In this document: in pieces, positions 31,851-49,466 of the stretch
How positions within the stretch are numbered: position 1 is the first letter of the stretch
Layout: the number at the start of each line of letters is the position of its first letter
Assembly: GCF_017876755.1 (NCBI RefSeq)
Contig: NZ_JAGIOO010000001.1
Span: 9,347,786 to 9,411,785, forward strand
Length of the DNA stretch: 64,000 nucleotides
Source of the DNA: Crossiella equi
GTDB taxonomy: Bacteria > Actinomycetota > Actinomycetes > Mycobacteriales > Pseudonocardiaceae
Direction of reading: 5' to 3'
Program-made: the position numbers and the translations under genes
The notes under the pieces: model-generated
Told to the model about the DNA's origin: nothing
The model's input: the letters and a program-made list of their open reading frames with translations, nothing else
Databases searched by the model: none

Positions 31851-31889
31851 CGAAAATGGAGCTTCAGCGAGTTCGGCCGCCAGGTCCCG

Positions 31890-33196
31890 CGGAGCACCCC
31901 CACGTGCGTGGGGCGGACCTCCGACCGAAGAACGGCTAGCTGTTCTTGGCCGGAGCACCCCCACGTGCGTGGGGCGGACGGAATAACAGCGGCATGAACC
32001 TGTTGGCGCAGCGGAGCACCCCCACGTGCGTGGGGCGGACAGGGGCTCAACCCGGCGGTCTCACTCGGCGAGCGGAGCACCCCCACGTGCGTGGGGCGGA
32101 CTCCGAATCATCATCAGTTCGTTCCGAACACATCGGAGCACCCCCACGTGCGTGGGGCGGACATCGAGGCACTGGTCCGTGGGTCAGCAGCAGACGGAGC
32201 ACCCCCCACGTGCGTGGGGCGGACCCGGTCAAGCACCGTGTCCAGCGCCTCAGCCGCGGAGCACCCACGTGCGTGGGGCGGACGTCAAGGACCACCTGCG
32301 TGATCCTGGCCGGGCGCGGAGCACCCCCACGTGCGTGGGGCGGACATCGACCGCAAGATGGACACCGGCCGGTTCCACGGAGCACCCCCACGTGCGTGGG
32401 GCGGACGCCTGGGCGGAGGTGCGGCGGTTGAGGATGGCCGGAGCACCCCCACGTGCGTGGGGCGGACACGGCGCGCAGTTCCTGCAAGGGCTTCAGATAC
32501 GGAGCACCCCCACGTGCTTGGGGCGGACTACGGCGTTCCCGCTGGGCACCGGCCTTGGGGAGGGAGCACCCCCACGTGCGTGGGGCGGACCCGCCGCCTG
32601 GCCGCAAGGTCGTCATGGACCTGGGAGCACCCCCACGTGCGTGGGGCGGACGGCCGGGTCGCTGACCTGGTAGCGGATCGCGGCGGAGCACCCCCACGTG
32701 CGTGGGGCGGACGGGCTCAACACCCAGGGCGACGGATACAGCAACGGAGCACCCCCACGTGCGTGGGGCGGACGGTCGAGTACGGCCAGTCCTGGCCGGA
32801 GCACGGAGCACCCCCACGTGCGTGGGGCGGACAAGGACGCGATGAAGCTCGCATCTACCGGAGCGGAGCACCCCCACGTGCGTGGGGCGGACTACGCATG
32901 CCCAGCTGGCCCGCCTGCCTGAAACGGAGCACCCCCACGTGCGTGGGGCGGACGTGACACCCACGATCCACGACAGCAGGCCAACCGGAGCACCCCCACG
33001 TGCGTGGGGCGGACCCCGGCCGCGTGCACTTCGACTTCACCGGCGCCGGAGCACCCCACGTGCGTGGGGCGGACGTGGCTGAGCCCGGCGGGTACTGCAT
33101 CGCCACCGGAGTACCCCCACGTGCGTGGGGCGGACCGCGCCGGAGCGTCGTCACCTGCTGCAGGGTCCGGAGCACCCCCACGTGCGTGGGGCGGAC
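31890..33196 (-). CRISPR. CRISPR array 1, type I-E, 22 repeats
   Basis: 22 repeats of 29 bases (start CGGAGCACC, palindromic core CCCCACGTGCGTGGGG, end CGGAC) with 21 spacers of 32-33 bases, giving a 61-base step. Read on the minus strand the repeat begins GTCCGCCCC and ends CTCCG, the usual I-E direction. The leader is therefore at the right, next to the repeat at 33168-33196. Variant repeats include those at 32196 (one extra C), 32258 (two C fewer), 32501 (GCTTG), 33048 (one C fewer) and 33108 (GTACC). Confidence 0.97.
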
Positions 33197-33334
33197 ACTT
33201 CGCGACCTGCGGCTTTACAGAGCAAGTAGTGAGTTTTCAAGGTGCGGTGTCACCGGTCGGTTGTCCCAGCGGTGGAGGTTGTCAGGGAGTGAGGGTATCG
33301 ATAGTTGCGTCGCAGGTACTGCCGGAGGAGTCAG
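33197..33334 (-). promoter_or_regulatory. Leader of CRISPR array 1 and upstream region of cas3 (set A)
   Basis: The first bases after the last repeat, ACTTCGCGACCTGC, then GCT, and an AGTTTTCAA block 36 bases in, recur at the same spacing after array 2 (37966 on). Such shared, non-repeat DNA at one end marks the leader. It reads leftward into the array, while cas3 starts rightward at 33335, so the two share a divergent control region. Confidence 0.8.
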
Positions 33335-36084
33335 GTGGGGTTGATGGTGGGGCTGGACATGCTGCTGTGGGCTAAGGAACGTGGTCTGCGGGAGCGGTAC
33401 TCGGTGTTCTGGCACAGCGCGGATGCCGCCGCGGCGGCCTGGGCGTTGTGGGAGCGGGTGTTGTCCCCGGCGCAGCGGGAGGTCATCGCCGAGGGCATGG
33501 GCGTCTCGCAGGCGCAGGCGCAGCGGTTGGTCGCGTTGTGGGCGGGGCTGCACGATCTGGGCAAGATCACCGAGGAGTTCCAGTGCAAGAGCGACCAGGC
33601 GGTCCAGGCGTTGCGGCAGGCTGGTTACCCCAGCGGGGACGCGGTCGTCCAGCTGCCCCATGATTTGGCCGGTCAGATCGCGGTGGCGCCGTTGTTGGCC
33701 GAGCTCGGGGCGGTGGAGGACCGGATTTGGACGCGTTCACCACATTGCGTGGCCGCGCAGGTCATCGGCGGTCACCACGGCCGCTTCCATGAGCTGGAGG
33801 CCCGGTTCGAGCGCTCCTACCGCAACCCGCAGGCCATGGGAGATGGGGAGTGGGAGCGGCAGCGGCGGCTGCTGGTCTCTGAACTGCACACCCTCCTGGG
33901 TGCCCCGGCCCTGCCGGCGCGGTTTGAGGTCGCGGCGGCGGCGTTGGTGACCGGGGTGGTGGTGCTGGCCGACTGGCTGGTCAGCCAGGTCTCCTTCATC
34001 ATCGCCCGCCAGGCCGACCCAGCCACCACGATCGCCGGCTGGTACCACAAGAGCCTGACCGCGATGCCCACCGTGTTGCGGGAGGCAGGGCTGGGGCGTG
34101 CGGTGCTGGCCGCCACCGACGTGCACACGGTGTGGGGGTTCGCTGCGAATACTTTGCAGGAGAGCGTGCAGCGGGAGCTGGCCGGGCGGGTGCGGGGTGC
34201 GGGGATCTTGGTGGTGACCGCGGCGCCGGGGGACGGCAAGACCGAGACCGCGCTGGTCGCGGCCTCCATCCTCGGGCAGGCCGCGGGGGTGTCGGGGGTG
34301 GTCTTCGCGCTGCCGACCATGGCCACCGCCGACCAGATGCACGCCCGGGTGCGGGAGTTCACCGACAAGGCGGTGACGGGACCGGCCGCGGTGACTCTGT
34401 TGCACAGCATGGCCCGCCTGCACCAGGCGGCTGCGTGGGGCGGGGGACGGTTGGTGGCGGTTGCAGGTCCGGGGGAGGTGCCGCAGTGGCTGTACGGGGC
34501 CAAGCGCGGGCTGCTGGCGCCGATGTCGGTGATCACCGTCGATCAGGCGTTGATGGCGGTGCTGCCGTTGCGGCACAACGTGATGCGCCTGTTGGGGCTC
34601 TCGGGCAAGGTGGTGGTCATCGATGAGGCCCACGCCTATGACTCCTACATGCAGTCCCTGCTGGTCACCTTGCTGACCTGGCTGGGGCGCTACCGGGTGC
34701 CGGTGGTGTTGTTGTCGGCGACCCTGCCCACGGTGATCAGCGACGCCCTGATCAACGCCTACCTGCGGGGCCGGCACGGCAAGGCCTACCAGGCTCGGGG
34801 TTTCGCTATCGCCTACCCGGGCTGGCTGTTCGTCGACGCCGAGGGCCAGACGATCGCACCGAGTGCGGAGGCGGTGCGGGAGATGGCCGTGATGCGCACC
34901 TCCCGGCTCACGGTCGACCTGGTCGAGGTCACCGGCGAGAGCGGGGCGGCTTCGCGCCGGGAGCGGGTGCGGGCGTTGCTGGAGCCGCTGCGTACCGGGG
35001 AGGCCGGGTCGCGGTGGTGTGCAACACGGTGGACTCGGCCCAGGAGACCTTCACCGACCTGCAGGCCTGGGCGGCCGGGGAGATCGAGGTGCGGCTCCTG
35101 CACGCCCGGCTGCCCGACGAGCAGCGCGCCATGGTCTCCGCGGAACTCCTGGCCGGGCACGGCAAGGGGCCGCGACCTGGAGGCGTGCCGAGTGTCACGG
35201 TGGCCACCCAGATCATCGAGCAGTCTCTGGACGTCGACTTCGACCTGGTGATCACCGACCTGGCCTCGATGGCCCAGCTGCTGCAGCGCGCGGGGCGCTG
35301 CCACCGCCATCCCCGCCCGGAGACCGATCGTGGCGCCTGGCCAGGTGATCCCCGGCTGGTGGTACTCGTCCCGGCCGACGAGGCGGGGGAGTTGGTGATG
35401 CCGTGGGCGTGGCGGGCGATCTACCCGCGGTATCTGCTGGAGCGCACCCTGGAGCGGCTGCGCGCCCGCGGGGGTCGGCCGGTGGCGGTGCCGGGGGATG
35501 TGGCCGGGTTGGTGGGTGAGGTCTACGACGAGTTTAGTCTGGAGGAGAAGGACCACCGCTGGTGGGTGGAGTACGAGGGGGACAAGCAGGCGCAGCGTGA
35601 CCGGGCTGGGTGGGTGAAGGTCCCGGAGGCGGGCTCGATCCGGAGGTTGGAGCAGCTGTCCCGGCCACCGGTGGCCGAGGCCGGGCCGTTGGAGGACTGG
35701 GAGGTGGAGCTGACGACCCGGTTGGGGGCGGATACCCAGCGGGTGGTGTGTTGTTTCGTGGACGAGTCGGGGCGGCGGTGGCTGGACCGGCACCGCTGGG
35801 TGGCCTTGCCGGGTGAGGAGGCCTCGGCGTCGTCCCGGCCGTCGGCGGTGGTGGTGCGGATGGTGATGGCTCGGTCTATTCCGGTCCGGGCGTCGTTGCT
35901 GACCGAGCACCAGGACGAGGGCCACGGGCGGCGTCCAGTGAGTTGGGAGAAGACGCCGTGGCTTGGAGACCTTGTCCTCATCCCGTTGCCTTTGCGGGGG
36001 ACTGCGGCAGGGGCGGTGGTTATCGGCAGGCGGACGTTTACTCTGGATGATCAGCTTGGCTTGGTGATTACCAAGATCGACTGA
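33335..36084 (+). pseudogene. cas3: cas3 (set A), HD nuclease-helicase with one frameshift
   Basis: Type I-E signature nuclease-helicase. GTG 33335 lies 6 bases after GGAGG; ATG 33344 is an alternative. HD part: FWHSADAAAAAW, LHDLGKITEEFQ, GGHHGRF. Helicase: Walker A-like TAAPGDGKTETAL, DEAH box in VVVIDEAHAYDSYM, motif III LLSATLPT. At about 34999 one base is missing within a GGGG run; the second half (VAVVCNTVDSAQETF, ATQIIEQSLDVDFDLVITDL, QRAGRCHRH) continues in another frame to a complete C-terminal domain at 36084. The joined product would be about 915 aa, normal length. It is a true pseudogene or a sequencing error; no canonical slippery heptamer is seen. Confidence 0.9.
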
Positions 36085-36108: not shown

Positions 36109-37965
36109 CGGAGCATCCCCCCCCGTATCTGGGGCGACGGGGACTACGGGCAGCCCCGCCCTGCGGGCGGCCGGAGCATCCTCACGTGCGCGGGGCAGAC
36201 ACGAGTTCGGTGCGGACCTGGTCCAGCGCGGCCGGAGCATCCCCACGTGTGTGGGGCGGACGTCAGCACAGGGTTGGGTCTGGTGGTGATGGCCGGAACA
36301 TCCCCACGGGTGTGGGGCGGACCCTCCCCAGCCTGATCGAGCCGACCTCAGCACCGGAACATCCCCACGGGCGTGGGGCGGACTCATGCAGGGTGTGACG
36401 CTCTTCGGTGGTGGCCGGAACATCCCCACGGGCGTGGGGCGGACGCCTCCAGGACGTACGCCCAGTGCGGCCATCCACGGAACATTCCCACGGGCGTGGG
36501 GCGGACCGATGATCGTCCCAGTGTGGACACCCTGATTTCCGGAACATCCCCACGGGCGTGGGGCGGACGTGGCGAGCGCGGCGAGGAGCGCGGGCCGCGG
36601 CGGAACATCCCCACGGGCGTGGGGCGGACACCGGCATGGACTCCTGGCCGAGCACGAAGCCCGGAACATCCCCACGGGCGCGGGGCGGACGGCGGCCAGG
36701 GGCGGACGCGACACGATGGCGCCGGAACATCCCCACGGGCGTGGGGCGGACCCAGGTGGCCCTGGCGTACGAGGCCGAGGCGCCGGAACATCCCCACGGG
36801 CGTGGGCGGACGCGGGAGAGCACCTCGGCAGGACCGGACCCGGCGGAACATCCCCACGGGCGTGGGGCGGACCTCGGTGCCGCGGTCGGCGCGTTCGCGC
36901 TCTCCGGAACATCCCCACGGGCGTGGGGCGGACACCAGCATGACCCCTGACGACGTGATCGACGTGCGGAACATCCCCACGGGCGTGGGGCGGACGACAG
37001 TAGAGCGCGATGGGCGGCCGACGAAGTCGGAACATCCCCACGGGCGTGGGGCGGACCGCCAGGGCCGATCCGGATGAACGGGTGGGGCCGGAACATCCCC
37101 ACGGGCGTGGGGCGGACTCGCCCGCGCCCATGGGGAGATCGTGAAGAACCGGAACATCCCCACGGGCGTGGGGCGGACAGGGTCGGCTCATCGGCGGCGG
37201 AGTGGCAGAACGGAACATCCCCACGGGCGTGGGGCGGACTCCCCGTGCTGCACCTGGGGCAGCCTGAAGCCCGGAACATCCCCACGGGCGTGGGGCGGAC
37301 ATAGTGGAGGGCGATCTTGGCGCGCCAGTGCGCGGAACATCCCCACGGGCGTGGGGCGGACCACTGCATGAGATCCGGGTAGGTCTGGTCGAGCGGAACA
37401 TCCCCCGTGGGCGGACTTCGGCCACCCTCGGGACAGTCCCCCCAGCGACGGAACATCCCCACGGGCGTGGGGCGGACAGCGACAGCCGCACCACCACCGC
37501 AGCGGGATCGGAACATCCCACGGGCGTGGGGGCGGACTACATCAGGGGCGGGTCGGTCACGAACGTGGACGGAACATCCCCACGGGCGTGGGGCGGACTA
37601 CATCAGGGGCGGGGTCGGTCACGAACGTGGACGGAACATCCCACGGGCGTGGGGCGGACTCGGGAATGTCCAGGAATGCCGGGTTGATTGGTCGGAACAA
37701 TCCCCACGGGCGTGGGGCGGACTCGCCGTGCAGCTCAGCCATGACGGGGATGTTCGGAACATCCCCACGGGCGTGGGGCGGACGTGGCCATTCCGGCCGC
37801 GAGTTCCGGTCCAGCGGAACAGTCCCCACGGGCGTGGGGCGGACGGCGCGACCGCCGGGGTGCGCACGCCTCGGACGGAACATCCCACGGGCGTGGGGGC
37901 GGACACTGGGACCGGTCGCTCGCCGTGGGCGATCGCCGGAACATCCCCACGGGCGTGGGGCGGAC
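36109..37965 (-). CRISPR. CRISPR array 2, type I-E, 31 repeats
   Basis: 31 repeats of 29 bases (start CGGAACATC, core CCCCACGGGCGTGGGG, end CGGAC) with 30 spacers of mostly 32-33 bases. It is read leftward from a leader right of 37965. The four leftmost repeats are degenerate, as expected at the old end: 36109 (badly decayed), 36172 and 36233 (GGAGCAT and ACGTGTGTG, like array 1) and 36294 (GGGTGTG). The spacers at 37538-37569 and 37599-37631 are duplicates. The array lies between cas3 and cas8e of set A, interrupting the usual gene order. Confidence 0.97.
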
Positions 37966-38100: not shown

Positions 38101-38608
38101 CTCCAGGAACCTGGTCGACAGAGCTTGAATACGCCTGGGCAGGGTCCCGGCGGCTTGATCTGCGGAAAGCTCCACGGTGAGCAGATCCTGGGGGCAGTCT
38201 GTCGTGCCCGAGGATCTCAGTTGTGCGCATTTGTTGAAACCCGAATCAAGCGCGCCTTGAATGCGTCGTTGTCGACGCAACCATTTTGGGGGTGGCTGCG
38301 GTAGGTGTGGTTGCTCCTGTGCGCTGTGCAGGGGGCGGTTGGTGGCGGATGGGGATCGCCCGCGTGTCTGTGTGGCCTTGAGAACCGGCCTGGCCTTCCA
38401 GGCGTGGAACATGCGGAGGGTGTGACGTGTCTGGCAATAAGCAAGACGGCATCGTGCAGTAAATGCTCGGATCGCCTTTTTCCTGGTAAAGGCTGTATCT
38501 CGGGTCGGCTCGCGGGAATTGTCGGTGTCATCCCCTAGGCTGCGCGCCGTCCTGATGACCGCATGCGCATTCACTAGAAGGTGTCATTGTTTTGTGAGGA
38601 GATCCGTA
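38101..38608. other. Gap between array 2 leader and cas8e (set A)
   Basis: About 500 bases with no credible gene in either strand: open frames here lack ribosome sites and family motifs. An AT-richer patch around 38430-38590 (AAGCAAGACGG, CATTGTTTTGTGAGGAG) is the probable promoter for the cas8e-cas11-cas7 remnant. Confidence 0.5.
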
Positions 38609-38689
38609 GTGGCTAACTCCGGTCCGGCCGGTGGCGATGTTCGTGGCGGTGCCGCGGTCGAGCCCGGCCGCGCGGGGGAGGAGCACGAG

Positions 38690-40204
38690 ATGGGGCTCGG
38701 TGTGCCCACCTACGACCTGCTGGAACGACCGTGGATTCCAGTACGCCGCCTGGGCGGGTCCCAGGTCGAGTTGGTGGGGTTGCGGGAGCTGTTCACCCGG
38801 GCGCACGAGCTCGCTGACCTCGCGGTTCCGCTCCCGCCGGCCGCGGCCGGGTTGTGGCGGGTGCTCTACGCCCTCACCGCCCGCATCGCCGACCTGTGCC
38901 CGCGGGAGTGGCTGGATCAGCGCCTGGACCTGCTCGACCAGGGCCACTTCGACCCAGAAGACATCGAGGCCTACTGCGGCAAGCACGCAGGCGCCTTTGA
39001 CCTATTCGGGCCGCGGCCGTGGATGCAGGAACCCACCCTCCGTCAGCAGTGCCCAGGTCCGTCCGGGATCAACAAGCTCGTCTTCGGCCGCCCGACCGGC
39101 AGCAACCAGGTGTGGTTCGGCCACTTCACCGACGCCCGCCCCGAACCCGTCCCCACACCCGAGGCGATCCAGCACCTGCTGATCCAGCACTACTACGGCC
39201 CGTCCGGGCGCTGCACCGCGCGCAAGGCCGGAGACGGTCAGCTGGCCAACTCCACCAAGGGGATCCTGCGCTCCACCCTGTCCTACCACCCCGTCGGCGA
39301 CACGCTGTTCGAGTCGCTGCTGCTCGGTCTGCCCAGCCCTGGCGATGACCCCGGCGGCCAGCCTGACGACCTGTGTCCGTGGGAGCGGACCCAGCCCCTG
39401 GACCCGCTGGGCAGGCCCCCGTATCCGAGCTGGCCCGGCGGGCTGCTCACCGGACGCTCCCGGCACGCGGTCCTGCTCCTCCCGGATGCCACCGGGGCCA
39501 ACGTCATCGACGCCTACGTCACCTGGGCCTGGCGCGAACCCGGCGCCGATGTGCCGGACCCGTACCTGATCTACCAGCTCAGCAAGGAGAACAACCCCTA
39601 CGGGCGCCGGGCGGAGATCGAGCGTGGCCTGTGGCGGGACCTGGACGCGCTGCTGCGCCACACCAGCCTGGGCTCCCAGTCGCGTCGGCCTCAGGTCTTC
39701 GACGGCCTCAAGGAGCTGCCCAGCGAGCTGCTGAACAGAGTTCGGATCCGCGCCTACGGCTTCGACCAGGACGGTCAGACGCGGGAGAAACGGTGGCTGT
39801 CCGCGCTCACCCCGCCGGTGCTCCACCGGATGGAGGAGGCATCCAAGGAAGCACCACAGCAGATCGGGCTGCTCCGTGAACACGCCGAAGCCTTGGGAGA
39901 GAAGCTGAAAACGGTACTCATCGGCGCCTGGCACCAGGCCACCGCAACCACCGATAAGGCCAAGACCGGGCCTTGGGCCGCTCGCGCCGCCCGCGTCTAC
40001 TGGCCCGCCGCCGAACGGGAGTTCTGGGACCGCCTGGCCGCTGAAGAGATCGACACCTCACCGGACCGCTTCCGGGAGCTGGCCCACGATGCCATCGACG
40101 CCGCGCTGAGTGAGACCGATGAGGCCAAGCGCACCGTGGCCAAGGCGATCGCCGCCGCCCACCGCAACCTCGACCGCAAAGACCGTGGCAAGGAGAGCAC
40201 GTGA
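38690..40204 (+). CDS. cas8e: Cas8e/Cse1 (set A), large Cascade subunit
   Basis: Large subunit of the type I-E surveillance complex; it recognises the PAM and recruits Cas3. ATG 38690 (site GGGGGAGGAG) gives 504 aa beginning MGLGVPTYDLLERPWIPVRR, the normal Cse1 start; GTG 38609 with GAGGAG would add 27 low-complexity residues. Typical stretches: FDLFGPRPWMQ, INKLVFGRPTGSNQVWFGHF and TLSYHPVGDTLFESLLLGLP, plus a C-terminal four-helix region. The frame is intact. The stop overlaps the cas11 start (GTGA). Confidence 0.93.
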   Translation: MGLGVPTYDLLERPWIPVRRLGGSQVELVGLRELFTRAHELADLAVPLPPAAAGLWRVLYALTARIADLCPREWLDQRLDLLDQGHFDPEDIEAYCGKHAGAFDLFGPRPWMQEPTLRQQCPGPSGINKLVFGRPTGSNQVWFGHFTDARPEPVPTPEAIQHLLIQHYYGPSGRCTARKAGDGQLANSTKGILRSTLSYHPVGDTLFESLLLGLPSPGDDPGGQPDDLCPWERTQPLDPLGRPPYPSWPGGLLTGRSRHAVLLLPDATGANVIDAYVTWAWREPGADVPDPYLIYQLSKENNPYGRRAEIERGLWRDLDALLRHTSLGSQSRRPQVFDGLKELPSELLNRVRIRAYGFDQDGQTREKRWLSALTPPVLHRMEEASKEAPQQIGLLREHAEALGEKLKTVLIGAWHQATATTDKAKTGPWAARAARVYWPAAEREFWDRLAAEEIDTSPDRFRELAHDAIDAALSETDEAKRTVAKAIAAAHRNLDRKDRGKEST

Positions 40205-40844
40205 GCACCGCCCTCACCACCCAAGCAGCCACGCCTGCCAGGGCCACGACCGTGGAGGAGAGGTTCGTCGAGCACATCCAGCAGCTGTGCGCCCGCTCGT
40301 CCGCAGCCCGCAACCAACTTCGTCGTACCGAACGTCGGCGCCCTGAAGATGTCAGCCGCGCCGTGCACCAGGTCGTGGCGCGCTGGCTGCCCGACAACCC
40401 CAGCCCAGGCCGCGAACGCGCCTACTACACCGTGGCCGCACTCCTCGCCGCCCAGCCCAACACCACCCACCGGAACATCGACGACCAGCCCCCGCCGGTA
40501 GTCGACGACACCGCCCCAGAGACGCGGCCACAGCAGCGGCGAGCCAACCGGGGGCGGCCCTGGCCCGAGCCTGTCTGGGACAGCCCGACGGCGCGAAGAC
40601 GATCGGCTTTGCCGGCGCCGAACGGCACCCGGAGCTGATCTGCCGCCAAGGCCTGCACGGCCTGCACCGCCACCTTCCCGCCGTCATCCGCCGCATGAGC
40701 GAGATCGACGCCAGCCCGGACTGGGTGCGGCTGCTTAAAGACCTGGCCCGCTGGGAGTGCACGCCCCGGCTGGTGGCCAAGGAATGGCAGCAGATTTTTT
40801 ACCGCACCGCCTACGATCCCGACGCCCTTCGGGCCGAAGAGTAG
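40201..40844 (+). pseudogene. cas11: cas11/cse2 (set A), frameshifted
   Basis: Small Cascade subunit. GTG 40201 overlaps the cas8e stop. The first 85 residues or so are normal (VEERFVEHIQQLCARSSAAR, VVARWLPDNPSPGRERAYYT). Then the frame becomes proline- and arginine-rich and stops at 40638. The expected second half (FAGAERHPELICRQGLHGLH, PDWVRLLKDLARWECTPRLV, AKEWQQIFYRT) lies in another frame, ending at 40844. The shift falls about 40500-40560. The joined length (about 214 aa) would be normal. Confidence 0.87.
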
Positions 40845-40847
40845 AAC

Positions 40848-41180
40848 GTGACCAGCACCCCCGCTCGCTACTACCTCGACTACCACCTGCTGCACACCCT
40901 GTCCTGCGTCAACCTCAACCACGACGACCTCGGCCCGCCGAAGTCGATGGTCTACAGCGGTCGGGAGCAGGCGGGGAGTTGTGCATCGACAAGAGCGGGA
41001 TGATCATCCTGGTCTACCTGCCCGAGGCCGCCATCGCCGAGCTCATTGCGGTTGCCTCCACTGCCGCGACGCTTCGTAGCCGAATCTACCGCCGAGGAAG
41101 CCAATCCGGCGGGGGAGGAAGTGGGCGGCGGGAAACCAAGCGGGGCCAGGGGAAGAAGGGTGCGGCCAGGTTGGCTGACT
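40848..41180 (+). pseudogene. cas7: cas7 (set A), internally deleted remnant
   Basis: GTG 40848 starts a normal Cas7e N-terminus (RYYLDYHLLHTLSCVNLNHD, DDLGPPKSMVYSG), but after 40 residues the frame changes and stops at 41003. A second frame, from about 40980, carries KSGMIILVYLPEAAIAELIA, which resembles a mid-protein Cas7e segment, and then fades. The RNA-binding core is missing. cas5 and cas6 of set A do not follow, so set A cannot make a complete Cascade. Confidence 0.8.
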
Positions 41181-41451
41181 GCTTCCGCAGGAGATCACGT
41201 AGCGAGCGAATCCCGCGCAGTCTTGGATGGCCGGACCACGCAGGGTATGAAGGTACCGACGGCGGCTTCAGCTTGATGGTTGCCACCGACCGCACCTGCA
41301 GTGCGACCATCACCATGGTGGTCAACCAGCTCGTGGATCCGCATTCAGATGAGACGGTCGAGCTGGCGCTGAGCAACCAGTCCCGTGGCCTGCCAGGACG
41401 TCGCGCACATGGATGAAACATGGCGAGGTAGTCTCACTTGGCGATGGCCGA
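41181..41451. other. Decayed DNA after the cas7 remnant
   Basis: No intact gene. A frame open to 41416 (DGGFSLMVATDRTCSATITM, VVNQLVDPHSDETVELALSN) looks protein-like, but I cannot match it to a Cas or transposase family. Confidence 0.35.
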
Positions 41452-41993: not shown

Positions 41994-42023
41994 GATCCTC
42001 CCCGCGCATGCGGGGATGTCTAC
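41994..42023 (+). repeat. Orphan CRISPR-like repeat upstream of cas3 (set B)
   Basis: GATCCTCCCCGCGCATGCGG followed by GGATGTCTAC has the I-E repeat form: CCCCGC-GCAT-GCGGGG stem and GATG after it. It runs in the opposite direction to arrays 1 and 2 and has a different stem (CCCCGC instead of CCCCACG). No second copy lies within the usual 61 bases. It looks like the last survivor of a deleted third array belonging to set B. Confidence 0.6.
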
Positions 42024-42059: not shown

Positions 42060-44423
42060 GTGGCCTCCGACCTTGACGCCCTTGCTGCGTGGGGAAAATC
42101 GAGCAAAGGGCGGTCCCATCCACTCGTATGCCATGCGCTCGACACGGCAGCGGTTGCCGACCGAGTGCTCGCGTTGTTCGTCGGGCCTGCTCTCAGGCGG
42201 GAACTGGTCGAAGCGCTCGCGCCACTCGGGCAGCCGGAGATCTGGGTCGGCACACTGTGTGGACTGCACGACCTCGGGAAGGTCACACCTACCTTCCAAG
42301 GGTTGAACCGAGCAGTCTCGAAATTCGATGCGGTGGCGATGCGTGACATCGAGCGAGTCGAGCGCCAAGCGGGCGTTTCCCGGCGAGTCGACACCCCACA
42401 CGGCATCGTCACCGCCCTGCACTTCCGGCAGATGCTGCGGGCCTGGGGGGCTACCCCGATCACGGCGGAGGTGATCGCCGGGGCGTTGGGCGGGCACCAC
42501 GGACACTTCCCGAGCACCGGCTCGGTACGGCAGGCGCAACGCGAGGTCAACAACCACGGCGGTGCGAGGTGGGAGGCGATCCGGGAGGACGTGGCTCGGC
42601 GGGTCCTGGAGTTGCGCGGGCTCCCAGACCCCACTGGTTTGCCCTGGGGGCGTGTGCAGGCCAACGAGGTGGTTGGTACGGCGCTGGCCGCGCTGACGAC
42701 ATTGAGCGACTGGATCGCCTCCGACGTTACGAACTTCGAGTTCGCCGCCCCTGACGACCTGGAGGCCTACACCCGCCACGCCAACTCGCTGGCGGACGCC
42801 GCGGTTGGCCGCCTGGAATGGAAGGCTTGGCAGCTGGCCACCACCTTCGTCGACTTGTTCCCGGCATACCCGGTGCGCCCGGTGCAGTCCGTTGTGGAGG
42901 CGCTGACCAAAGACCTGGCCGAGCCCGGGCTTGTCGTGATCGAGGCCCCGACAGGCGAGGGCAAGACCAAAGCCGCTTTGCAGGCCGCGGCCGCGCTGTC
43001 CGCCAACACCGGTGCCGCGGGTGCGTACATCGCGGCGCCGACTAGGGCAACGGGCCAGCAGACGTTCAGGGAGCTCGACAAGCTGTTGTGCCAGCACGGC
43101 GATCCCGCACGGCCGGAGCTGGTCCACGCCGGAGCGGCTGAGTTCCTGGCTGAACTCGCCGCGCGACCGACCAGCGTGGGGGAGGACGATGAACAAGACT
43201 CGGACCTCCGGGCGCAGTCCTGGTTCACCAACAAAAAGAACCTTCTTGCGCCTGTTGGGGTGGGCACGGTCGACCAGGCGCTGAAAGGGGCCATCCGGTC
43301 CGGCCATGCCTTCGTGCGCCTGGTGGCGCTGACGAACAAGGTGTTTGTGGTGGATGAGGTCCACGCCTACGACACCTACATGTCCACCCTGCTCGACCGC
43401 TTGTTGGCCTGGTTGGGACGGATGGGCGTCAGCGTTGTGCTGTTGTCGGCCACTCTGCCCCGGCGTCGCCGTGACGAACTGATCGCCGCGTGGCGGGCCG
43501 GCGCGCTCGGGAGCATGCGGGCCGAACCACCGAAGCGGCACCGCGAGGATGCCTATCCCCGGGTCACCTTGGCGACCAGGGATAAGCCGGCCGAGGAGCA
43601 CCCGGCCGAGCTGTCCGAGCTGAACGCGTCCAGGCCATTGGCGCTCAAGCGCATCTCTGACGACGAGGTCGTGGCCTGGGCTCTGGAGGAGGCCGGGAAA
43701 GGGCGGGCAGTGGCTGTCGTGCACAACCTCGTGCGCAGAGCGACCCACACCTACCAACAACTCCAGAGAAGCCTCACCAGGCTACCGAAGGGCAGGCGAC
43801 CGAAGCTCTACCTGTACACCGGCCGGTTGACCAGCGGTCAACGTCGTGCGGTGGAGAACAAGCTGATCGACAGCTTCGGCGAGGGCGGGTCCCGGCATGC
43901 GGCGATCATCGTCGGGACCCAGGTGCTGGAGCAGGGACTGGACCTGGACTTCGACGCGATGCTCACCGACCTGGCCCCAGTGGACGTGCTGACCCAGCGC
44001 GCGGGCCGGCTGCACCGGCACTCCCGAGGTGGTAGCCGGGGAGAGTTCGTCCTGCACCTGGCCGGAGTCGCGGACGGCGACACCGGACCGGTTTTCCCGC
44101 CTTATCTCGACCGGGTGTACGATTCCATGATCTTGTTGCGAACCTGGGCTCTTCTGCGGGACAAGAAGAGCATCACACTACCCGCCGACGTGCCCGAGCT
44201 GATCGACGCCGTGTACGACCCGGCGGAGGGGATCGGTTGCCCGGCAGGGTGGCACGAGGCCTGGCAGGCCGCTGCGGAAAAGCTTTCACGTGCGCGCACC
44301 GAGTCCAATCACAAGGCCCGGCTCATGTACGTTCCGCATCCGGCTGCCCTCGACGACCTGAGCGAGCTCACCCGCAACCCGATGAACACCAGCCGAACCC
44401 GGGAAAAGAGCAGGAGGCGTTGA
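42060..44423 (+). CDS. cas3: Cas3 (set B), HD nuclease-helicase lacking its C-terminal domain
   Basis: Type I-E Cas3 of 787 aa from GTG 42060 (weak ribosome site). HD part: HPLVCHALDTAAVADRVLAL, LHDLGKVTPTFQ, GGHHGHFP. Helicase: EAPTGEGKTKAAL (Walker A), VVDEVHAYDTYM (DEVH in place of DEAH), LLSATLP, then ATHTYQQLQ, GTQVLEQGLDLDFDAML and QRAGRLHRH. It stops after the linker (HPAALDDLSELTRNP ... KSRRR). The accessory C-terminal domain present in set A Cas3 is absent here and reappears, one frame over, at the start of the next gene. Confidence 0.93.
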   Translation: MASDLDALAAWGKSSKGRSHPLVCHALDTAAVADRVLALFVGPALRRELVEALAPLGQPEIWVGTLCGLHDLGKVTPTFQGLNRAVSKFDAVAMRDIERVERQAGVSRRVDTPHGIVTALHFRQMLRAWGATPITAEVIAGALGGHHGHFPSTGSVRQAQREVNNHGGARWEAIREDVARRVLELRGLPDPTGLPWGRVQANEVVGTALAALTTLSDWIASDVTNFEFAAPDDLEAYTRHANSLADAAVGRLEWKAWQLATTFVDLFPAYPVRPVQSVVEALTKDLAEPGLVVIEAPTGEGKTKAALQAAAALSANTGAAGAYIAAPTRATGQQTFRELDKLLCQHGDPARPELVHAGAAEFLAELAARPTSVGEDDEQDSDLRAQSWFTNKKNLLAPVGVGTVDQALKGAIRSGHAFVRLVALTNKVFVVDEVHAYDTYMSTLLDRLLAWLGRMGVSVVLLSATLPRRRRDELIAAWRAGALGSMRAEPPKRHREDAYPRVTLATRDKPAEEHPAELSELNASRPLALKRISDDEVVAWALEEAGKGRAVAVVHNLVRRATHTYQQLQRSLTRLPKGRRPKLYLYTGRLTSGQRRAVENKLIDSFGEGGSRHAAIIVGTQVLEQGLDLDFDAMLTDLAPVDVLTQRAGRLHRHSRGGSRGEFVLHLAGVADGDTGPVFPPYLDRVYDSMILLRTWALLRDKKSITLPADVPELIDAVYDPAEGIGCPAGWHEAWQAAAEKLSRARTESNHKARLMYVPHPAALDDLSELTRNPMNTSRTREKSRRR

Positions 44424-44428
44424 CTTCC

Positions 44429-46378
44429 GTGCCCGACGATCAGGAAACGCTGAGTGTCGACGTCGTCCTGCTCACCTTGGACTGGAACCGGTGCAGACCG
44501 GTCGACAGCGATGTCGAGGTAGACCTGAACGGCAACAGCGAGCCGTCGAACGAGGTCGTCTCAGCTCTGCTGAACTCCGCGCTCACCCTCGTCGCCGAGG
44601 GCGACATCCCACCCGACCTCGTTGGCGAACTCGTTGAAACTGCCGTGCCCCCGTTGTTCCGGTCCAGCCCCTCGCTGTTGGACCACCGGGCTTTGCTGTT
44701 CTCGGACGGCCGGTGTGCCGTCGGCGGCCACCTGCTCCAGTACCACCAGGCGAGCGGCCTGGAACTCGGTGAGCCTCCCGCCGAACCGCCCATGGTCGAA
44801 CAGTCCTTCGACTTGCTCACCCAGCCGTGGATCCCGGTGCTGTGCAACGACGGCAACACCGACATGGTCAGCTTGACCGACCTGTTCACCCGTTCGCGGA
44901 CGATCCGTCGGATCACCGGCGAGACCGCGCCGATGACGGCCGCGCTGTACCGGCTTGTGCTGGCCTTGCTGCACCGGATCTACGGACCAGGAAGCGAGAC
45001 CGAGTGGAAGGACCTGTGGGAAACGGAGAGCTTCCCGCGCGGTCCCATGGCCGAGTACCGCGACCGCTTCGCTGACCGGTTCGACCTCTTCCATGAAACA
45101 CGCCCGTTCCTCCAATGTCCGCAGCTCGCCGCCCTGCGGCCTGCCACGCCCGCAAAACTGGTCCCCTACCGTGCTGTGGGCAACAACGTCACCCTCTTCG
45201 ACCACACCACCGCTGACGACGAAGTCGTTCTGCGCGCTGACGAAGCAGCTCGGTGGCTGGTCACAACGCATGCCTTCGACCCTGGCGGGATGAAGACGCC
45301 TTTCCTGAAGGACAAGTCCTCCGAACGCGCGCACTGCAACAACTTCGGCGTGATCCTGGTAGAGGGCGCGAACCTGCACGAGACGTTGCTGCTGAACACG
45401 CTGGTCTATCACCCGGTGAACGAGAGGCCGGTGATGACCACCGCGGACGACTGCCCGGTCTGGGAGCGGGAGGAACCACCGCTCGGCCTGCCCGGCAAGG
45501 CCCGGCCGCGTGGCTGGACCGACCTGCTCACGTGGCCGTCGCGACGGATCCTGCTGTCGAGCGAGAACGGGATGGTCACCGGCGTTGTGCTCACCCCCGG
45601 CGACCGGCTCATGATCGATGTGGTCGCCGAGGAGAAGATGGCCGCCTTCCGACGACCACGCGATCCCAAGGGCAAGATCAAGAAAGACGCTCCGCTGCTG
45701 CCAGTGCGACTTCACCCGGTGCGAGGGGTGTGGAGGCACAGCGTCGATCTGCTGATGAAAGACCTGTGGCTTGAGGGCGACCACCACCGTGCGCCGGCAC
45801 TCGACCAGCTCGACCACTTCACCGGTCGTGAGCACATTCCGGCCGACGCGGAATACACCCTGCGCGTGTTCGGGCAGCGTCTGGACAAGAAGGCCGCCGT
45901 GATCGAGGCCTGGCAGGAGGAAGAGGTGCCTGCCCCGGTCCCGTTGCTGCGTTCCCGGGACGAACGGGTTGGTGGCCTGATCGGTGAGGCCATCTCACTC
46001 GCCGACGAGATCGGCTCAGCCCTGCGAGCCCTGCAGGCGAACTTCCGCCGGGAGCTGAAGGCCGAGCCATACGCCGACATCGACCTCTCCTACTGGCCTC
46101 GGCTGGCCCGCCCGTTCGGGACGTTGTTGAGCAGCATCGGCCGGTGTCTTGACGAAGGCAAAACCGCATGGGACCCCGCGTGGACGTGGGCAGAAGCGGT
46201 GATCCGGCTCGGAGAGGAGACCGCCAGCCGGTGGGTGCGGTCCTCGCCTCTGGAGGCCACCAGCTTGCTCGTGCTCGGCAAGCATCACGCCCAGTTCCTG
46301 AGTCGGCTGGCTACAACGAAGAAGACCTATCGCCTGAAGATCGTCGGCTACTGCGCGCCGGAGGACGATGATGACTGA
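44429..46378 (+). CDS. cas8e: Cas3 C-terminal domain fused to Cas8e/Cse1 (set B)
   Basis: One open frame of 649 aa from GTG 44429 (GGAGG 11 bases upstream). Residues 1 to about 120 (SVDVVLLTLDWNRCRPVDSD, VVSALLNSALTLVAEGDIPP, LLDHRALLFSDGRCAVGGHL, ASGLELG) align with the C-terminal domain of set A Cas3. Cse1 then begins at residue 122 (ATG 44792): MVEQSFDLLTQPWIPVLCND, LFTRSRTIRRITGETAPMTA, FDLFHETRPFLQ, NTLVYHPVNERPVM. The junction has no stop. Either the fused form is made, or Cse1 starts at 44792 with a poor ribosome site. Natural Cas3-Cse1 fusions are known in some actinomycete I-E systems, so this may be a split version. Confidence 0.88.
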   Translation: MPDDQETLSVDVVLLTLDWNRCRPVDSDVEVDLNGNSEPSNEVVSALLNSALTLVAEGDIPPDLVGELVETAVPPLFRSSPSLLDHRALLFSDGRCAVGGHLLQYHQASGLELGEPPAEPPMVEQSFDLLTQPWIPVLCNDGNTDMVSLTDLFTRSRTIRRITGETAPMTAALYRLVLALLHRIYGPGSETEWKDLWETESFPRGPMAEYRDRFADRFDLFHETRPFLQCPQLAALRPATPAKLVPYRAVGNNVTLFDHTTADDEVVLRADEAARWLVTTHAFDPGGMKTPFLKDKSSERAHCNNFGVILVEGANLHETLLLNTLVYHPVNERPVMTTADDCPVWEREEPPLGLPGKARPRGWTDLLTWPSRRILLSSENGMVTGVVLTPGDRLMIDVVAEEKMAAFRRPRDPKGKIKKDAPLLPVRLHPVRGVWRHSVDLLMKDLWLEGDHHRAPALDQLDHFTGREHIPADAEYTLRVFGQRLDKKAAVIEAWQEEEVPAPVPLLRSRDERVGGLIGEAISLADEIGSALRALQANFRRELKAEPYADIDLSYWPRLARPFGTLLSSIGRCLDEGKTAWDPAWTWAEAVIRLGEETASRWVRSSPLEATSLLVLGKHHAQFLSRLATTKKTYRLKIVGYCAPEDDDD

Positions 46379-46979
46379 CCGGACCCCGACGCCTCGAACG
46401 AGCTACATCGCTCAGTTGCACGGCATCGAGCGTGCTCTGAACTCGGGTATTCAAAAACGGGTTGCTGGTGCCCGTCACGACCTGGCCTTGCTACGCCGAA
46501 GCTTGACCGGCGGGCGCCAGGCTGAGGCATACGAGGTCGTGTTCCGCGACGCGATGCCCGACCGCAGCCAGGAACAGGAGGTCTGGGTGCTGGTGGGTGG
46601 GCTGTTCGCCTTGCACCCGTCGCCCTGGCGGGATGCCGGACGGATCCGCAGCATCGGGGCATCGATGGGATTGCTGAGCAAGAAGGCGCCCAACGCGGCC
46701 ACCGTGACCAGACGATTCACCCAGCTCCTCGGACGCAGCCCGGCAGCACTTCCGTACGACCTTCGGCAAGCCGTGCGCCTTCTCGCGGACCACGGTGTCC
46801 CGGTCCACTACGGCAGGCTCCTCGACGACCTGGTTGTTCTGCTGGGCAAGGAACCTCGTGGTGAACGCGCCAGCGAGGTCCGGCTCACCTGGGCCCGCGA
46901 GTACCACCTGCCCCGTACCGCCACGACCACCACCGAGCCGGCCGAACCAGGCTCGACTGCTCTGGAGAACACACCGTGA
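46368..46979 (+). CDS. cas11: Cas11/Cse2 (set B), small Cascade subunit
   Basis: 203 aa, alpha-helical. It overlaps cas8e by 11 bases. It starts with TSYIAQLHGIERALNSGIQK, then GARHDLALLRRSLTGGRQAE, VWVLVGGLFALHPSPW and FTQLLGRSPAALPYDLRQAV, with the typical end RLLDDLVVLLG...EVRLTWAREYH. This subunit dimerises along the Cascade belly and holds the target strand. It is complete, unlike its set A counterpart. Confidence 0.93.
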   Translation: MMTDRTPTPRTSYIAQLHGIERALNSGIQKRVAGARHDLALLRRSLTGGRQAEAYEVVFRDAMPDRSQEQEVWVLVGGLFALHPSPWRDAGRIRSIGASMGLLSKKAPNAATVTRRFTQLLGRSPAALPYDLRQAVRLLADHGVPVHYGRLLDDLVVLLGKEPRGERASEVRLTWAREYHLPRTATTTTEPAEPGSTALENTP

Positions 46980-48097
46980 TCATCGAACTGCACCTGCTCC
47001 AGTCCTTCCCGGTGAGCAATCTCAACCGCGACGACCTCGGCCAGCCCAAGACCGCGTCGGTCGGTGGCCACCTCAGAGCCCGGATCTCCAGCCAGAGCCT
47101 CAAACGAGCCGCGCGAAAGCTCTTCACCGAGTACGGACTCGACAAGTCCGAGGTCGGTGTGCGTACCAAACGGTTGCTCACGCAGGTAGAGAACCAGTTG
47201 GCTGACCAGGGGCGCGACCGGGATGAAGCGCGAGGCGTGGTCATCGCGGCGCTGGAACAGCTCGGCTTCGGCGTCGACTCGGCCAAGGGACTCACCGAGT
47301 ACCTGCTGTTCGTCAGCACGGAGACGATCGACCGGCTGGCCGAGCTCTGCACACAGAACTGGGACAGCCTGTCGGCCTTCGCCTCGGCCAAGTCGGGAGC
47401 GAAGCAGGCCAAGGCCAAACTCGACAAGGCGGCCCAGGCGGAGGTCAAGCGTGTCCTGGATGCCAGCCGCGCCACCGACATCGCGCTGTTCGGCCGTATG
47501 ATCGCTGACAACAAAGACCTCAACGTCGACGCCGCGTCCCAGGTCGCCCATGCGATCTCCACCCACGTGGCCGTCACCGAGTTCGACTACTTCACCGCCG
47601 TGGATGACTTCCTGCCCACCGAGGAGTCCGGCGCGGACATGATCGGCACGGTGGACTTCAACTCCGCCTGCTACTACCGGTACGCCAACATCAACCTGGA
47701 ACAACTGGCCCGGAACCTCGACAACGACCGCGACTTGGTGCGCCGCGCCGCCAAGGCGTGGCTGTACGCCTTCATCAACGCCGTTCCCGGTGGCAAGCAG
47801 AACTCGACGGCGGCCCGGACGATGCCTGACACCCTGCTGGGCGTGGCCCGCCCGCACGGCGCGTGGAACCTGTCCAACGCCTTCCTCAACCCGGTCAGCG
47901 CCGACGACTTGATGGCAGAGTCCACGACCAGGCTGATCGACCACTTCACCAAGCTCAGGTCCTTCTACGGGAAGTCCAACATCGCCTCCGCTGTGGCCGC
48001 CTCGGTCTCCAGGGACTTGGCACCGGCCGACGGACTGGCCATCGCGGACAACGTCGATGACTTCGTCGAGGCGGTACTGACCGGGGCAGCGGCGTGA
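46976..48097 (+). CDS. cas7: Cas7e/Cse4 (set B), Cascade backbone
   Basis: 373 aa; GTGA overlap with cas11. It starts IIELHLLQSFPVSNLNRDDL, then PKTASVGGHLRARISSQSLK, the standard Cas7e opening that binds crRNA. Further: DIALFGRMIADNKDLNVDAA, QVAHAISTHVAVTEFDYFTA, SGADMIGTVDFNSACYYRYA and NQ-type ends. Six copies would line the crRNA. Complete and of normal length. Confidence 0.96.
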   Translation: MIIELHLLQSFPVSNLNRDDLGQPKTASVGGHLRARISSQSLKRAARKLFTEYGLDKSEVGVRTKRLLTQVENQLADQGRDRDEARGVVIAALEQLGFGVDSAKGLTEYLLFVSTETIDRLAELCTQNWDSLSAFASAKSGAKQAKAKLDKAAQAEVKRVLDASRATDIALFGRMIADNKDLNVDAASQVAHAISTHVAVTEFDYFTAVDDFLPTEESGADMIGTVDFNSACYYRYANINLEQLARNLDNDRDLVRRAAKAWLYAFINAVPGGKQNSTAARTMPDTLLGVARPHGAWNLSNAFLNPVSADDLMAESTTRLIDHFTKLRSFYGKSNIASAVAASVSRDLAPADGLAIADNVDDFVEAVLTGAAA

Positions 48098-48813
48098 CGA
48101 CGAGCTTGGCGCTGTGCTTCGACGCGCCCATGCAGTCGTGGGGGACACGGGCCCGGGGAATCGTCCGCGACAGCACCGCGGAGCCGACGAAGTCCGGGGT
48201 GATCGGAGTGCTCGGCGCCGCTCTAGGCGTTGAACGGGATGACGAGCCACGCATCGCCGAGCTGGCCGAGCTGCGCCTGGGCGTGCGGGTGGATCGCGAA
48301 GGGCTTCTGGAACGCGACTACCACACCACCCAGGATGTTCCCACCACGCAGGGAACCGGTCACCGCACCGTCGTCAGCGAGCGCTACTACCTGGCCAACG
48401 CCCTGTTCCTCGTGGTCCTGGAAGGCGAGAGGCTGCTGCTGGAGCGGGTGGCTGACGCGATACGCAATCCCCGCTACCCGATGTTCTTCGGCCGCAAGGC
48501 GTACGTCCCGTCGCGACCCTTGCTGCTCCCGGAGGCTGCTCCCGTGGACCGCGGCCTTGACGAGATGATCGCTGAGCACAGCTGGCTCGAACCGTCTGAT
48601 CTAGCCCGGAATCGTGCACTGCGAGACAAGGAGCGATCGGCACTGCGCACGGTGGTCGACTGCGCGCCAACCCAGGCGGGAGCGGAAGCCCGCAACGACC
48701 AACCGGTGAGCTTCGCCCACGACCACCGCCGACACGGCCCCCGAACAGTCCTCGTCAGCCAAACCCCCCTCACCGACCGCATGATCGTAGAGGGAGTGAG
48801 TCTGTGTTCCTGA
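48094..48813 (+). CDS. cas5: Cas5e (set B), crRNA 5'-handle binding subunit
   Basis: 239 aa; GTGA overlap with cas7. It starts SLALCFDAPMQSWGTRARGI, then RDSTAEPTKSGVIGVLGAAL, LLERDYHTTQDVPTTQGTGH and PRYPMFFGRKAYVPSRPLLL, all hallmark Cas5e strings. It caps the Cascade backbone and holds the 5' handle. Complete. Confidence 0.96.
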   Translation: MTTSLALCFDAPMQSWGTRARGIVRDSTAEPTKSGVIGVLGAALGVERDDEPRIAELAELRLGVRVDREGLLERDYHTTQDVPTTQGTGHRTVVSERYYLANALFLVVLEGERLLLERVADAIRNPRYPMFFGRKAYVPSRPLLLPEAAPVDRGLDEMIAEHSWLEPSDLARNRALRDKERSALRTVVDCAPTQAGAEARNDQPVSFAHDHRRHGPRTVLVSQTPLTDRMIVEGVSLCS

Positions 48814-49466
48814 CAAAACTCGTGATCAACCCCCTGTCCCCGCAGTTCCGGACGGATGCCCGCGATGTCCAGAACATGCACCGCACGGTGATGTCCGGCT
48901 TTCCGGAAGAGCAGCCCAGCGATGCCTACAGGCAGACACACGGCGTGCTGTGGCGACTGGACCAAACCGACCACATCGTCCACTACGTTCAGAGCGCGAC
49001 CGAACCCGACTGGAGCCGTCTCCCTGAGAGTCACCTGATCGGCTCCGCCCAGGTCCGCTCACTGCAGCCAGTCCTGGACGCCATCGCTCCAGGCCGAAAA
49101 TTCGCCTTCCGGCTACAGGCCAACGCCACGCGCTGCGTCCGGACCGACGACAAGCCGCACGTCCCCACCCGAGTGCCGCTCAAAGATCCCGACGAACAAC
49201 TGGGATGGCTGGCCAGGAAGGGCGATCAACACGGCTTCGTAATCCCGGCAGGTCACCACGGCCGCCCTGACGTCGCCGCAAGCCCGGTCTCGCGGCTCAC
49301 CGGTAACCGGAAGAACCACCGCCTGACTATCACCCCAGTCCGGTTCGACGGCCACCTCGTCGTCACCGATGCCGAGGTGTTTCGCCAGGCGGTCATCGGC
49401 GGCATCGGTCGCGCAAAGGCGTATGGCTGCGGCCTTCTGAGCCTCACCCGTCCACTCTCTCCTTGA
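48804..49466 (+). CDS. cas6: Cas6e (set B), pre-crRNA endonuclease
   Basis: 220 aa; GTG 48804 lies inside the cas5 end. It starts FLTKLVINPLSPQFRTDARD, then VQNMHRTVMSGFPEEQP, where His in NMHRTVM is the usual catalytic position. The C-terminal glycine loop is GGIGRAKAYGCGLLSLTRP. It would cut repeats at the base of the stem. Since no array of the set B repeat type survives nearby, its substrate is either arrays 1 and 2 or something outside the window. No cas1 or cas2 follows. Confidence 0.94.
   Translation: MFLTKLVINPLSPQFRTDARDVQNMHRTVMSGFPEEQPSDAYRQTHGVLWRLDQTDHIVHYVQSATEPDWSRLPESHLIGSAQVRSLQPVLDAIAPGRKFAFRLQANATRCVRTDDKPHVPTRVPLKDPDEQLGWLARKGDQHGFVIPAGHHGRPDVAASPVSRLTGNRKNHRLTITPVRFDGHLVVTDAEVFRQAVIGGIGRAKAYGCGLLSLTRPLSP

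What the first reader, a model, noticed from the sequence alone, without database searches (positions are those of the whole stretch)
42060..46378. Cas3 C-terminal domain has moved to the front of Cas8e in set B
Seen: set B Cas3 stops right after its linker. Residues 1 to about 120 of the next gene align by eye with the C-terminal domain of the set A Cas3 (matching VVxxxLxxSxxL, the LLDHRALL-like and GLEL-like ends) and run into Cse1 without a stop. Known: some actinomycete I-E systems have natural Cas3-Cse1 fusions. Inference: the ancestor was a fused Cas3-Cse1 and a frame change near 44400-44423 split it after the helicase. The CTD would now be tethered to Cascade instead of to the nuclease-helicase. 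A Cas3 that docks through its own detached domain would be a new arrangement.
Basis: partly seen in the sequence, partly recalled or inferred. Interest (0 to 1): 0.75.

Follow-up and report, generated by a model that had tools for sequence, protein, structure and literature searches.

The report
Split Cas3 domain carried by Cascade
In a group of actinomycete CRISPR systems the end piece of the DNA-shredding protein Cas3 has become a separate small protein, and in a few, including this genome, it is attached to the target-finding complex instead, which gives a natural way to find out what that piece does.

Summary
The type I-E Cas3 at 42060-44423 has nuclease and helicase but no C-terminal domain (CTD); the next protein (44420-46378) starts with that CTD and continues as Cas8e (Pfam; the CTD model matches Cas3 structures). 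It is neither a sequencing error nor unique. Trees of Cas8e and Cas3 put it in a clade (support 100) of 51 actinomycete loci whose Cas3 ends after the helicase. In 37 the CTD is a stand-alone gene between cas3 and cas8e, in 7 it is fused to Cas8e, in 7 I found none at the locus. The 6 Cas3-Cse1 fusions in the trees lie outside, and joining them with the CTD-Cas8e rows is rejected (p-AU 6e-5). The clade also lacks cas1 beside the operon (32 of 33 loci with room; 20 of 20 outgroup loci have it). Best mechanism: the CTD acts in trans as removable lid and docking piece of Cas3, pre-mounted on Cascade here. Anatomy and history are shown; function is inferred.

The parts
42060..44423 (+). cas3 without its C-terminal domain: HD nuclease, helicase domains and a short linker tail
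   Evidence: Pfam/NCBIfam; no Cas3_C match; nuclease and helicase motif columns conserved across the clade
44412..44431 (+). junction: AGGAGG (44412-44417), TTG start overlapping the cas3 TGA (44420-44423), alternative GTG start at 44429
   Evidence: sequence; four-base start/stop overlap in 20 of 29 related junctions
44420..44776 (+). Cas3 C-terminal domain (PF18395) at the N-terminus of the Cas8e protein (right-hand edge approximate)
44777..44809 (+). flexible linker between CTD and Cas8e (edges approximate)
   Evidence: low pLDDT at residues 121-130 of the model
44810..46378 (+). Cas8e/Cse1 part of the same protein
   Evidence: PF09481 E 2e-98; top Foldseek hit T. fusca Cse1 E 2e-31
46368..46979 (+). 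cse2 (cas11e)
   Evidence: PF09485
46976..48097 (+). cas7e
   Evidence: PF09344
48094..48813 (+). cas5e
   Evidence: PF09704
48804..49466 (+). cas6e, last gene of the operon; no cas1 match up to 55000
   Evidence: PF08798

Best explanation
This is a complete Cascade operon of a type I-E clade that has no cas1 beside it and whose Cas3 is split. The nuclease-helicase ends after its linker and the CTD is made separately, probably by coupled re-initiation at the cas3 stop. In the ancestor of this sub-branch (or twice) the free ctd gene fused in frame to the cas8e gene behind it. Proposed mechanism: the CTD, which in ordinary Cas3 covers the single-stranded-DNA channel and is proposed to contact Cse1, works in trans. 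Mounted on Cas8e by a flexible linker, it receives the CTD-less Cas3 at the R-loop, takes the place of the covalent lid, and gates entry of the displaced strand. Shown: domain content, fold, operon, clade, order of events, selection on the CTD. Inferred: re-initiation, binding to Cas3, gating, and that interference works.
For: Domain content; the CTD fold matches Cas3 entries before noise, and a profile of 32 CTDs matches 4q2c residues 846-947. All 36 named clade loci have a Cas3 tail of 1-16 aa after the helicase match, against 110-204 aa in the 20 outgroup loci with a cas3 match; the first set gave 1-15 aa in 33 of 33 against 147 or more in 15 of 15. Clade support 100 in the Cas8e, Cas3 and concatenated trees. 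The fused sub-branch holds 7 of 7 fusions, 94 in each single-gene tree and 100/99 concatenated. Nine pairs of free CTDs give dN/dS 0.11-0.63. HD and helicase motifs are conserved. A review says the CTD is suggested to contact Cse1 and to leave the Cas3 core transiently (PMC5965380, passages); a 2024 paper says its precise function is not elucidated (PMC11417383, passages).
Against: No experiment, and no complex model: the tool folds single chains only. 7 of 51 rows have no CTD at the locus; four of six of their genomes gave no hit at all and two only one in a frame as long as a full Cas3; a seventh genome gave the same. So the CTD can be lost, or those systems are dead. Window set B has no array beside it. 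The nearest relative of the window locus, L150, has a free CTD, so tethering to Cas8e is not essential. Three of nine dN/dS ratios exceed 0.5, so constraint on the CTD is moderate. In type I-C the Cas3-Cas8 contact was placed in other loops than the CTD (PMC11417383, passages).
Confidence: 0.62

Rival explanations
1. One reading: an ancestral full Cas3-Cse1 fusion was cut by a frame change in the linker.
For: Full Cas3-Cse1 fusions exist and carry the CTD between helicase and Cse1, e.g. L136 residues 869-990 of 1610.
Against: All 6 full fusions in the trees lie outside the split clade; the held-together tree is rejected, p-AU 6.4e-5 on Cas8e; the commonest state inside the clade is a free CTD gene.
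Confidence: 0.03
2. Programmed frameshifting (or stop read-through) at the overlap makes some full-length Cas3 with CTD, so the split is only apparent.
For: In 20 of 29 loci the CTD frame is -1 relative to cas3; the CTD frame is open upstream of 44420 in the window (ORF from 44237); in L146 cas3 and CTD share a frame with one stop between.
Against: CTD frames differ between loci (20, 8 and 1 of 29), yet a start codon lies at each of the 29 junctions, from 31 bases before to 6 after the end of cas3 (starts were sought from about 30 bases before the stop onward). In the window AGGAGG precedes the overlap, and I saw by eye no canonical slippery heptamer in the right phase.
Confidence: 0.1
3. The CTD on Cas8e no longer serves Cas3; it has become a structural or regulatory part of Cas8e, and Cas3 works without a lid.
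For: Several clade members keep an intact Cas3 reading frame and Cas8e without any CTD.
Against: 37 of 51 rows keep a free CTD as a separate protein next to cas3, under some purifying selection, which does not fit a Cas8e-only role.
Confidence: 0.15
4. The window locus and its kin are decaying, non-functional remnants.
For: No cas1 beside the operon, no array beside window set B, CTD losses; set A next door is broken.
Against: All six genes of the window operon are intact and co-linear; 13 of 36 named loci have CRISPR arrays within the fetched DNA, 8 of them on both sides; catalytic motifs are conserved.
Confidence: 0.1

Closest known systems
Type I-E with natural Cas3-Cse1 fusion (e.g. L136, L132, L064 here)
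   Same: Cas3 parts and Cse1 are physically joined; the CTD is next to Cse1
   Different: there the whole Cas3 is on the chain; here only the CTD is, and Cas3 remains a separate protein; different branch of the tree
Ordinary type I-E Cas3 (PDB 4q2c/4q2d, to my recollection from Thermobaculum terrenum; T. fusca 4qqx/4qqy/4qqz)
   Same: Pfam families of HD, helicase and CTD; CTD fold
   Different: CTD covalently on Cas3
Adaptation-less I-E of Streptomycetaceae with tnsB/tnsC (Faure 2019, as described in the review PMC12231136; the original was not read)
   Same: same gene order cas3-cas8e-cse2-cas7-cas5-cas6 without cas1 (and there without cas2)
   Different: Mu-transposase C-terminal domain (PF09299) found in only 2 of 34 and 1 of 6 clade genomes; in the two with comparable positions it is on another contig. 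No detached CTD is mentioned in the passages read
Type I-D
   Same: a Cas3 part (the HD domain) sits on the large subunit while the helicase is separate (PMC5965380, passages)
   Different: there the nuclease moved, here the CTD

Membership tests
Type I-E CRISPR-Cas | Cse1/Cas8e, Cse2, Cas7, Cas5e and Cas6e of the I-E families | tested here: met
Type I-E CRISPR-Cas | Cas3 with HD nuclease and SF2 helicase with intact motifs | tested here: met
Type I-E CRISPR-Cas | CTD on the Cas3 chain | tested here: not met
   the CTD is on Cas8e
Type I-E CRISPR-Cas | cas1-cas2 adaptation module beside the operon | tested here: not met
   with two I-E Cas1 queries (cas1 only; cas2 not searched; a very divergent Cas1 would be missed)
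Cas3 C-terminal domain family (PF18395) | profile match and fold | tested here: met
   32 of 32 CTDs match at E<=1, window 3e-7 above the gathering score; fold
Natural Cas3-Cse1 fusion | one chain HD-helicase-CTD-Cse1 | tested here: not met
   tree test
TnsB/TnsC-associated I-E | tnsB beside the operon | tested here: not met
   PF09299: none in the window genome; 2 of 34 and 1 of 6 genomes; in two of the three it is on another contig, in the third the contig was not matched to the locus

The most novel reading that the evidence does not exclude
In this clade the Cas3 CTD has become a genuine subunit of the surveillance complex: a Cascade-borne gate that catches a lidless Cas3 nuclease-helicase at the R-loop. 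The gating function thus passed from the nuclease to the target-recognition complex, first as a free subunit and then by fusion to Cas8e.
Probability: 0.4. Interest if true: 0.78.

Novelty: new variant of a known kind. Interest (0 to 1): 0.68.

Why it matters
What the Cas3 CTD does is an open question (PMC11417383, on a type I-C Cas3, says its precise function has not been elucidated; passages). Here nature has separated it from Cas3 in all 51 clade rows, moved it onto Cascade in 7 and apparently dropped it in 7. That gives a ready-made set for testing whether the CTD is a lid, a docking piece or both, and a two-part or Cascade-tethered switch for Cas3 tools. It also suggests that CRISPR annotation should look for the small ctd gene (about 100-140 codons), which could be overlooked; how it is annotated in public records was not checked.

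Tried and rejected
Rejected: sequencing error (same junction logic in many genomes); chance match; split of a Cas3-Cse1 fusion; Tn7-like association (with one contig not placed). Not settled: whether CTD and Cas8e fused once and reverted in L150, or fused twice (one origin without L150 is not rejected, p-AU 0.305; the window locus plus L150 is a 100/99 pair). The same two clade tests on the Cas3 tree were started and did not finish; I did not resume them. Led nowhere: a first scan of genome contigs with the single protein; viral scans (searches gave no usable pattern; one search gave one distant Cas8e); plasmids (161 records, none covering 80% of the query; the 15 listed start at residue 129-130 with 29-34% identity); VIA-align (library not present). 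In one search my residue numbers are shifted by one against the columns; the column counts stand.

Literature searches for a separate or moved Cas3 CTD: in the held open-access library. None of the titles and abstract beginnings listed describes it; two searches listed 20 of 39 and 20 of 47 papers, two of three. Papers seen as passages only: PMC12231136, PMC4223832, PMC5965380, PMC9427990, PMC3150331, PMC3890593, PMC11417383. The rest were seen in listings only. Faure 2019 and Shmakov 2018 are known to me here through PMC12231136; Huo 2014, Westra 2012 and the Cas3-Cascade structure papers were not read.

Full report
What is in the window. Pfam and NCBIfam show an intact type I-E interference operon of six genes at 42060-49466: cas3, cas8e, cse2, cas7, cas5, cas6. 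Cas3 (787 aa) has Cas3_HD, DEAD and Cas3-like_C_2 but no Cas3_C. The Cas8e protein begins with Cas3_C (residues 9-111 of 44429-46375, E 8e-7, above the gathering score) and continues as Cse1 (E 2e-98). AlphaFold on an alignment of 45 rows gives mean pLDDT 90.7; residues 11-120 are folded with block means 86-98, residues 121-130 are weak (60), and Cse1 follows. Foldseek finds T. fusca Cse1 first and, at rank 24, the Cas3 entry 4q2d at E 3e-4 over 133 columns. The CTD folded alone (pLDDT 89.3) matches 4q2d and 4q2c at E 3e-7 and 5e-7, and T. fusca Cas3 chains at 0.004-0.02; the next hit is at 2.4. A profile of 32 CTDs finds 4q2c residues 846-947 at E 3.8e-12.

The junction. The cas3 stop TGA (44421-44423) overlaps a TTG start (44420) in the Cas8e frame, with AGGAGG at 44412-44417; GTG 44429 is an alternative. 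The AGGAGG is very close to the TTG and rather far from the GTG, so the true start is open.

Relatives. In 390 genomes of the family, 99 have a Cas8e match (at most 3 candidates per genome were scored, so copies are undercounted). Cas8e places fall into two classes: 31 at 369 bits or more (window included) and the rest at 196 or less. I fetched the 30 others of the upper class, two more from the order-level search and 15 others for contrast. The window and 32 of 32 such loci have a Cas3 that ends 1-15 residues after the helicase match; of the 15 others, 13 have a separate Cas3 with 147-192 further residues and two have Cas3-Cse1 on one chain. A named scan gave 57 loci and repeats this: 36 of 36 clade loci have tails of 1-16 residues, 20 of 20 outgroup loci with a cas3 match have 110-204 (L185 has no cas3 match; where cas3 matched in pieces, as in L161, L183, L190 and L200, I count the last piece; L161 and L200 have a broken cas3).

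Where the CTD is. In the first set of 32 loci I found a free CTD gene in 29, a fusion to Cas8e in 2 and none in 1 (L045). Of the 36 named loci 23 have a free CTD, 6 a fusion (L144 Micromonospora sp. HM5-17, L145 Streptosporangium saharense, L146 Acrocarpospora catenulata, L147 Actinokineospora auranticolor, L155 Spongiactinospora gelatinilytica, L163 Actinocrispum wychmicini) and 7 none (L149, L154, L158, L161, L171, L175, L176). In L171 the profile gives a weak hit (E 0.25) between cas3 and cas8e, perhaps a remnant. A joined set of 51 rows, used for the trees, has 37 free, 7 fused and 7 without. Of 32 CTDs scanned, 32 match PF18395 at E<=1 and no other family matches more than one. The start of the CTD overlaps the cas3 stop by exactly four bases in 20 of 29 named loci, free and fused. 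Nine pairs of related free CTDs give dN/dS 0.11-0.63, three of them above 0.5: maintained as protein, with moderate constraint.

History. Quick maximum-likelihood trees of Cas8e and Cas3 HD-helicase, 77 rows each, put the 51 rows on one side of a branch with support 100. The 26 outgroup rows were labelled by their long Cas3 tail or open frame; the split-type CTD profile gives some hit to 24 of them, many of them weak (E 0.001 to 0.4), and none to L101 or L199. The 6 full Cas3-Cse1 fusions all lie in the outgroup, in several places. Forcing the 7 CTD-Cas8e rows and the 6 full fusions together costs 1022 log units, p-AU 6.4e-5 (Cas8e). The concatenated tree (55 rows, without the mixture model) puts all 7 CTD-Cas8e rows in a nine-row sub-branch (100/99; 94 in each single-gene tree) inside rows with free CTDs, with L149 (CTD lost) and L150 (free CTD, sister of the window locus 100/99). 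So the CTD was freed first and fused to Cas8e later: either once with a return to a free gene in L150, or twice. One origin without L150 is not rejected (p-AU 0.305).

The rest of the system. Among 36 named clade loci 33 have about 1.5 kb or more beyond cas6; 32 have no cas1 match and L177 has two short fragments; 20 of 20 outgroup loci with room have cas1 there (the queries were two I-E Cas1 of the window's genome, so a very divergent Cas1 would be missed). In 18 clade genomes Cas1 (PF01867) is found somewhere in 10. In the window's genome Cas1 lies at 2.25 and 7.08 Mb, near other Cas8e copies. CRISPR arrays were seen within 13 of 36 named loci, on both sides in 8, and in none of the 7 without CTD, two of which have less DNA to search. 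TnsB-type PF09299 occurs in 2 of 34 and 1 of 6 genomes, on another contig in the two where positions can be compared, so this does not look like the tnsBC variant that a review attributes to Faure 2019 (passages).

Loss of the CTD. Whole-genome searches with the CTD profile in the genomes of six of the loci without CTD find none in 4; in 2 the only hit lies in an open frame of 943-999 aa, as for a full Cas3, and the same holds for L154/L045, Streptoalloteichus hindustanus, frame 994. In most of these genomes 150 of 161-258 first-look candidates were scored, so a weak copy could be missed. Either Cas3 can work without a lid in this clade, or these are failing systems.

How it probably works. 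[quoted passage not shown] A 2024 paper on a type I-C Cas3 calls the CTD a filter on a long linker whose precise role is unknown, and places the Cas3-Cas8 contact of type I-C in other loops (anchor and recruit loops), so docking by the CTD is not a general rule. A domain that must open and that is thought to touch both Cas3 and Cse1 can plausibly be cut from Cas3 and kept as a separate piece, and later mounted on Cse1. The catalytic HD and helicase columns are conserved through the clade (HD in 49 of 49 rows with letters, D, E and H of the DExH motif in 51 of 51). The binding and gating steps are inference.

Verdict.

Noticed in passing
window 33305-36084: Set A cas3 is broken: two overlapping ORFs in different frames match the front (residues 34-484) and back (553-720) of the set B Cas3. 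Described only.
   Followed up: partly
window 38519-41416: Set A has cas8e and a short cse2 (145 aa, weak match); among the ORFs listed before set B I saw no obvious cas7, cas5 or cas6, but did not scan them.
   Followed up: no
window 31889-33178 and 36292-37826: CRISPR arrays near set A; set B has only a lone repeat-like sequence at 42000.
   Followed up: partly
L149, L154, L158, L161, L171, L175, L176: Clade members with no CTD found at the locus; none of the seven has an array in the fetched DNA.
   Followed up: partly
L177:9868-10282: Two short cas1 fragments downstream of cas6, perhaps a remnant of a lost adaptation module.
   Followed up: no
L146:4572-4574: cas3 and the CTD-Cas8e gene are in one frame separated by a single stop codon.
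   Followed up: no
G000 at 2.25, 7.08 and 9.39 Mb: The genome has four Cas8e genes; the Cas3 of the two distant ones is full-length (L100 and L101) and the set A Cas3 piece carries Cas3_C, so only set B is of the split kind.
   Followed up: partly
L208: A contig in the viral collection with a distant Cas8e (30% identity).
   Followed up: no
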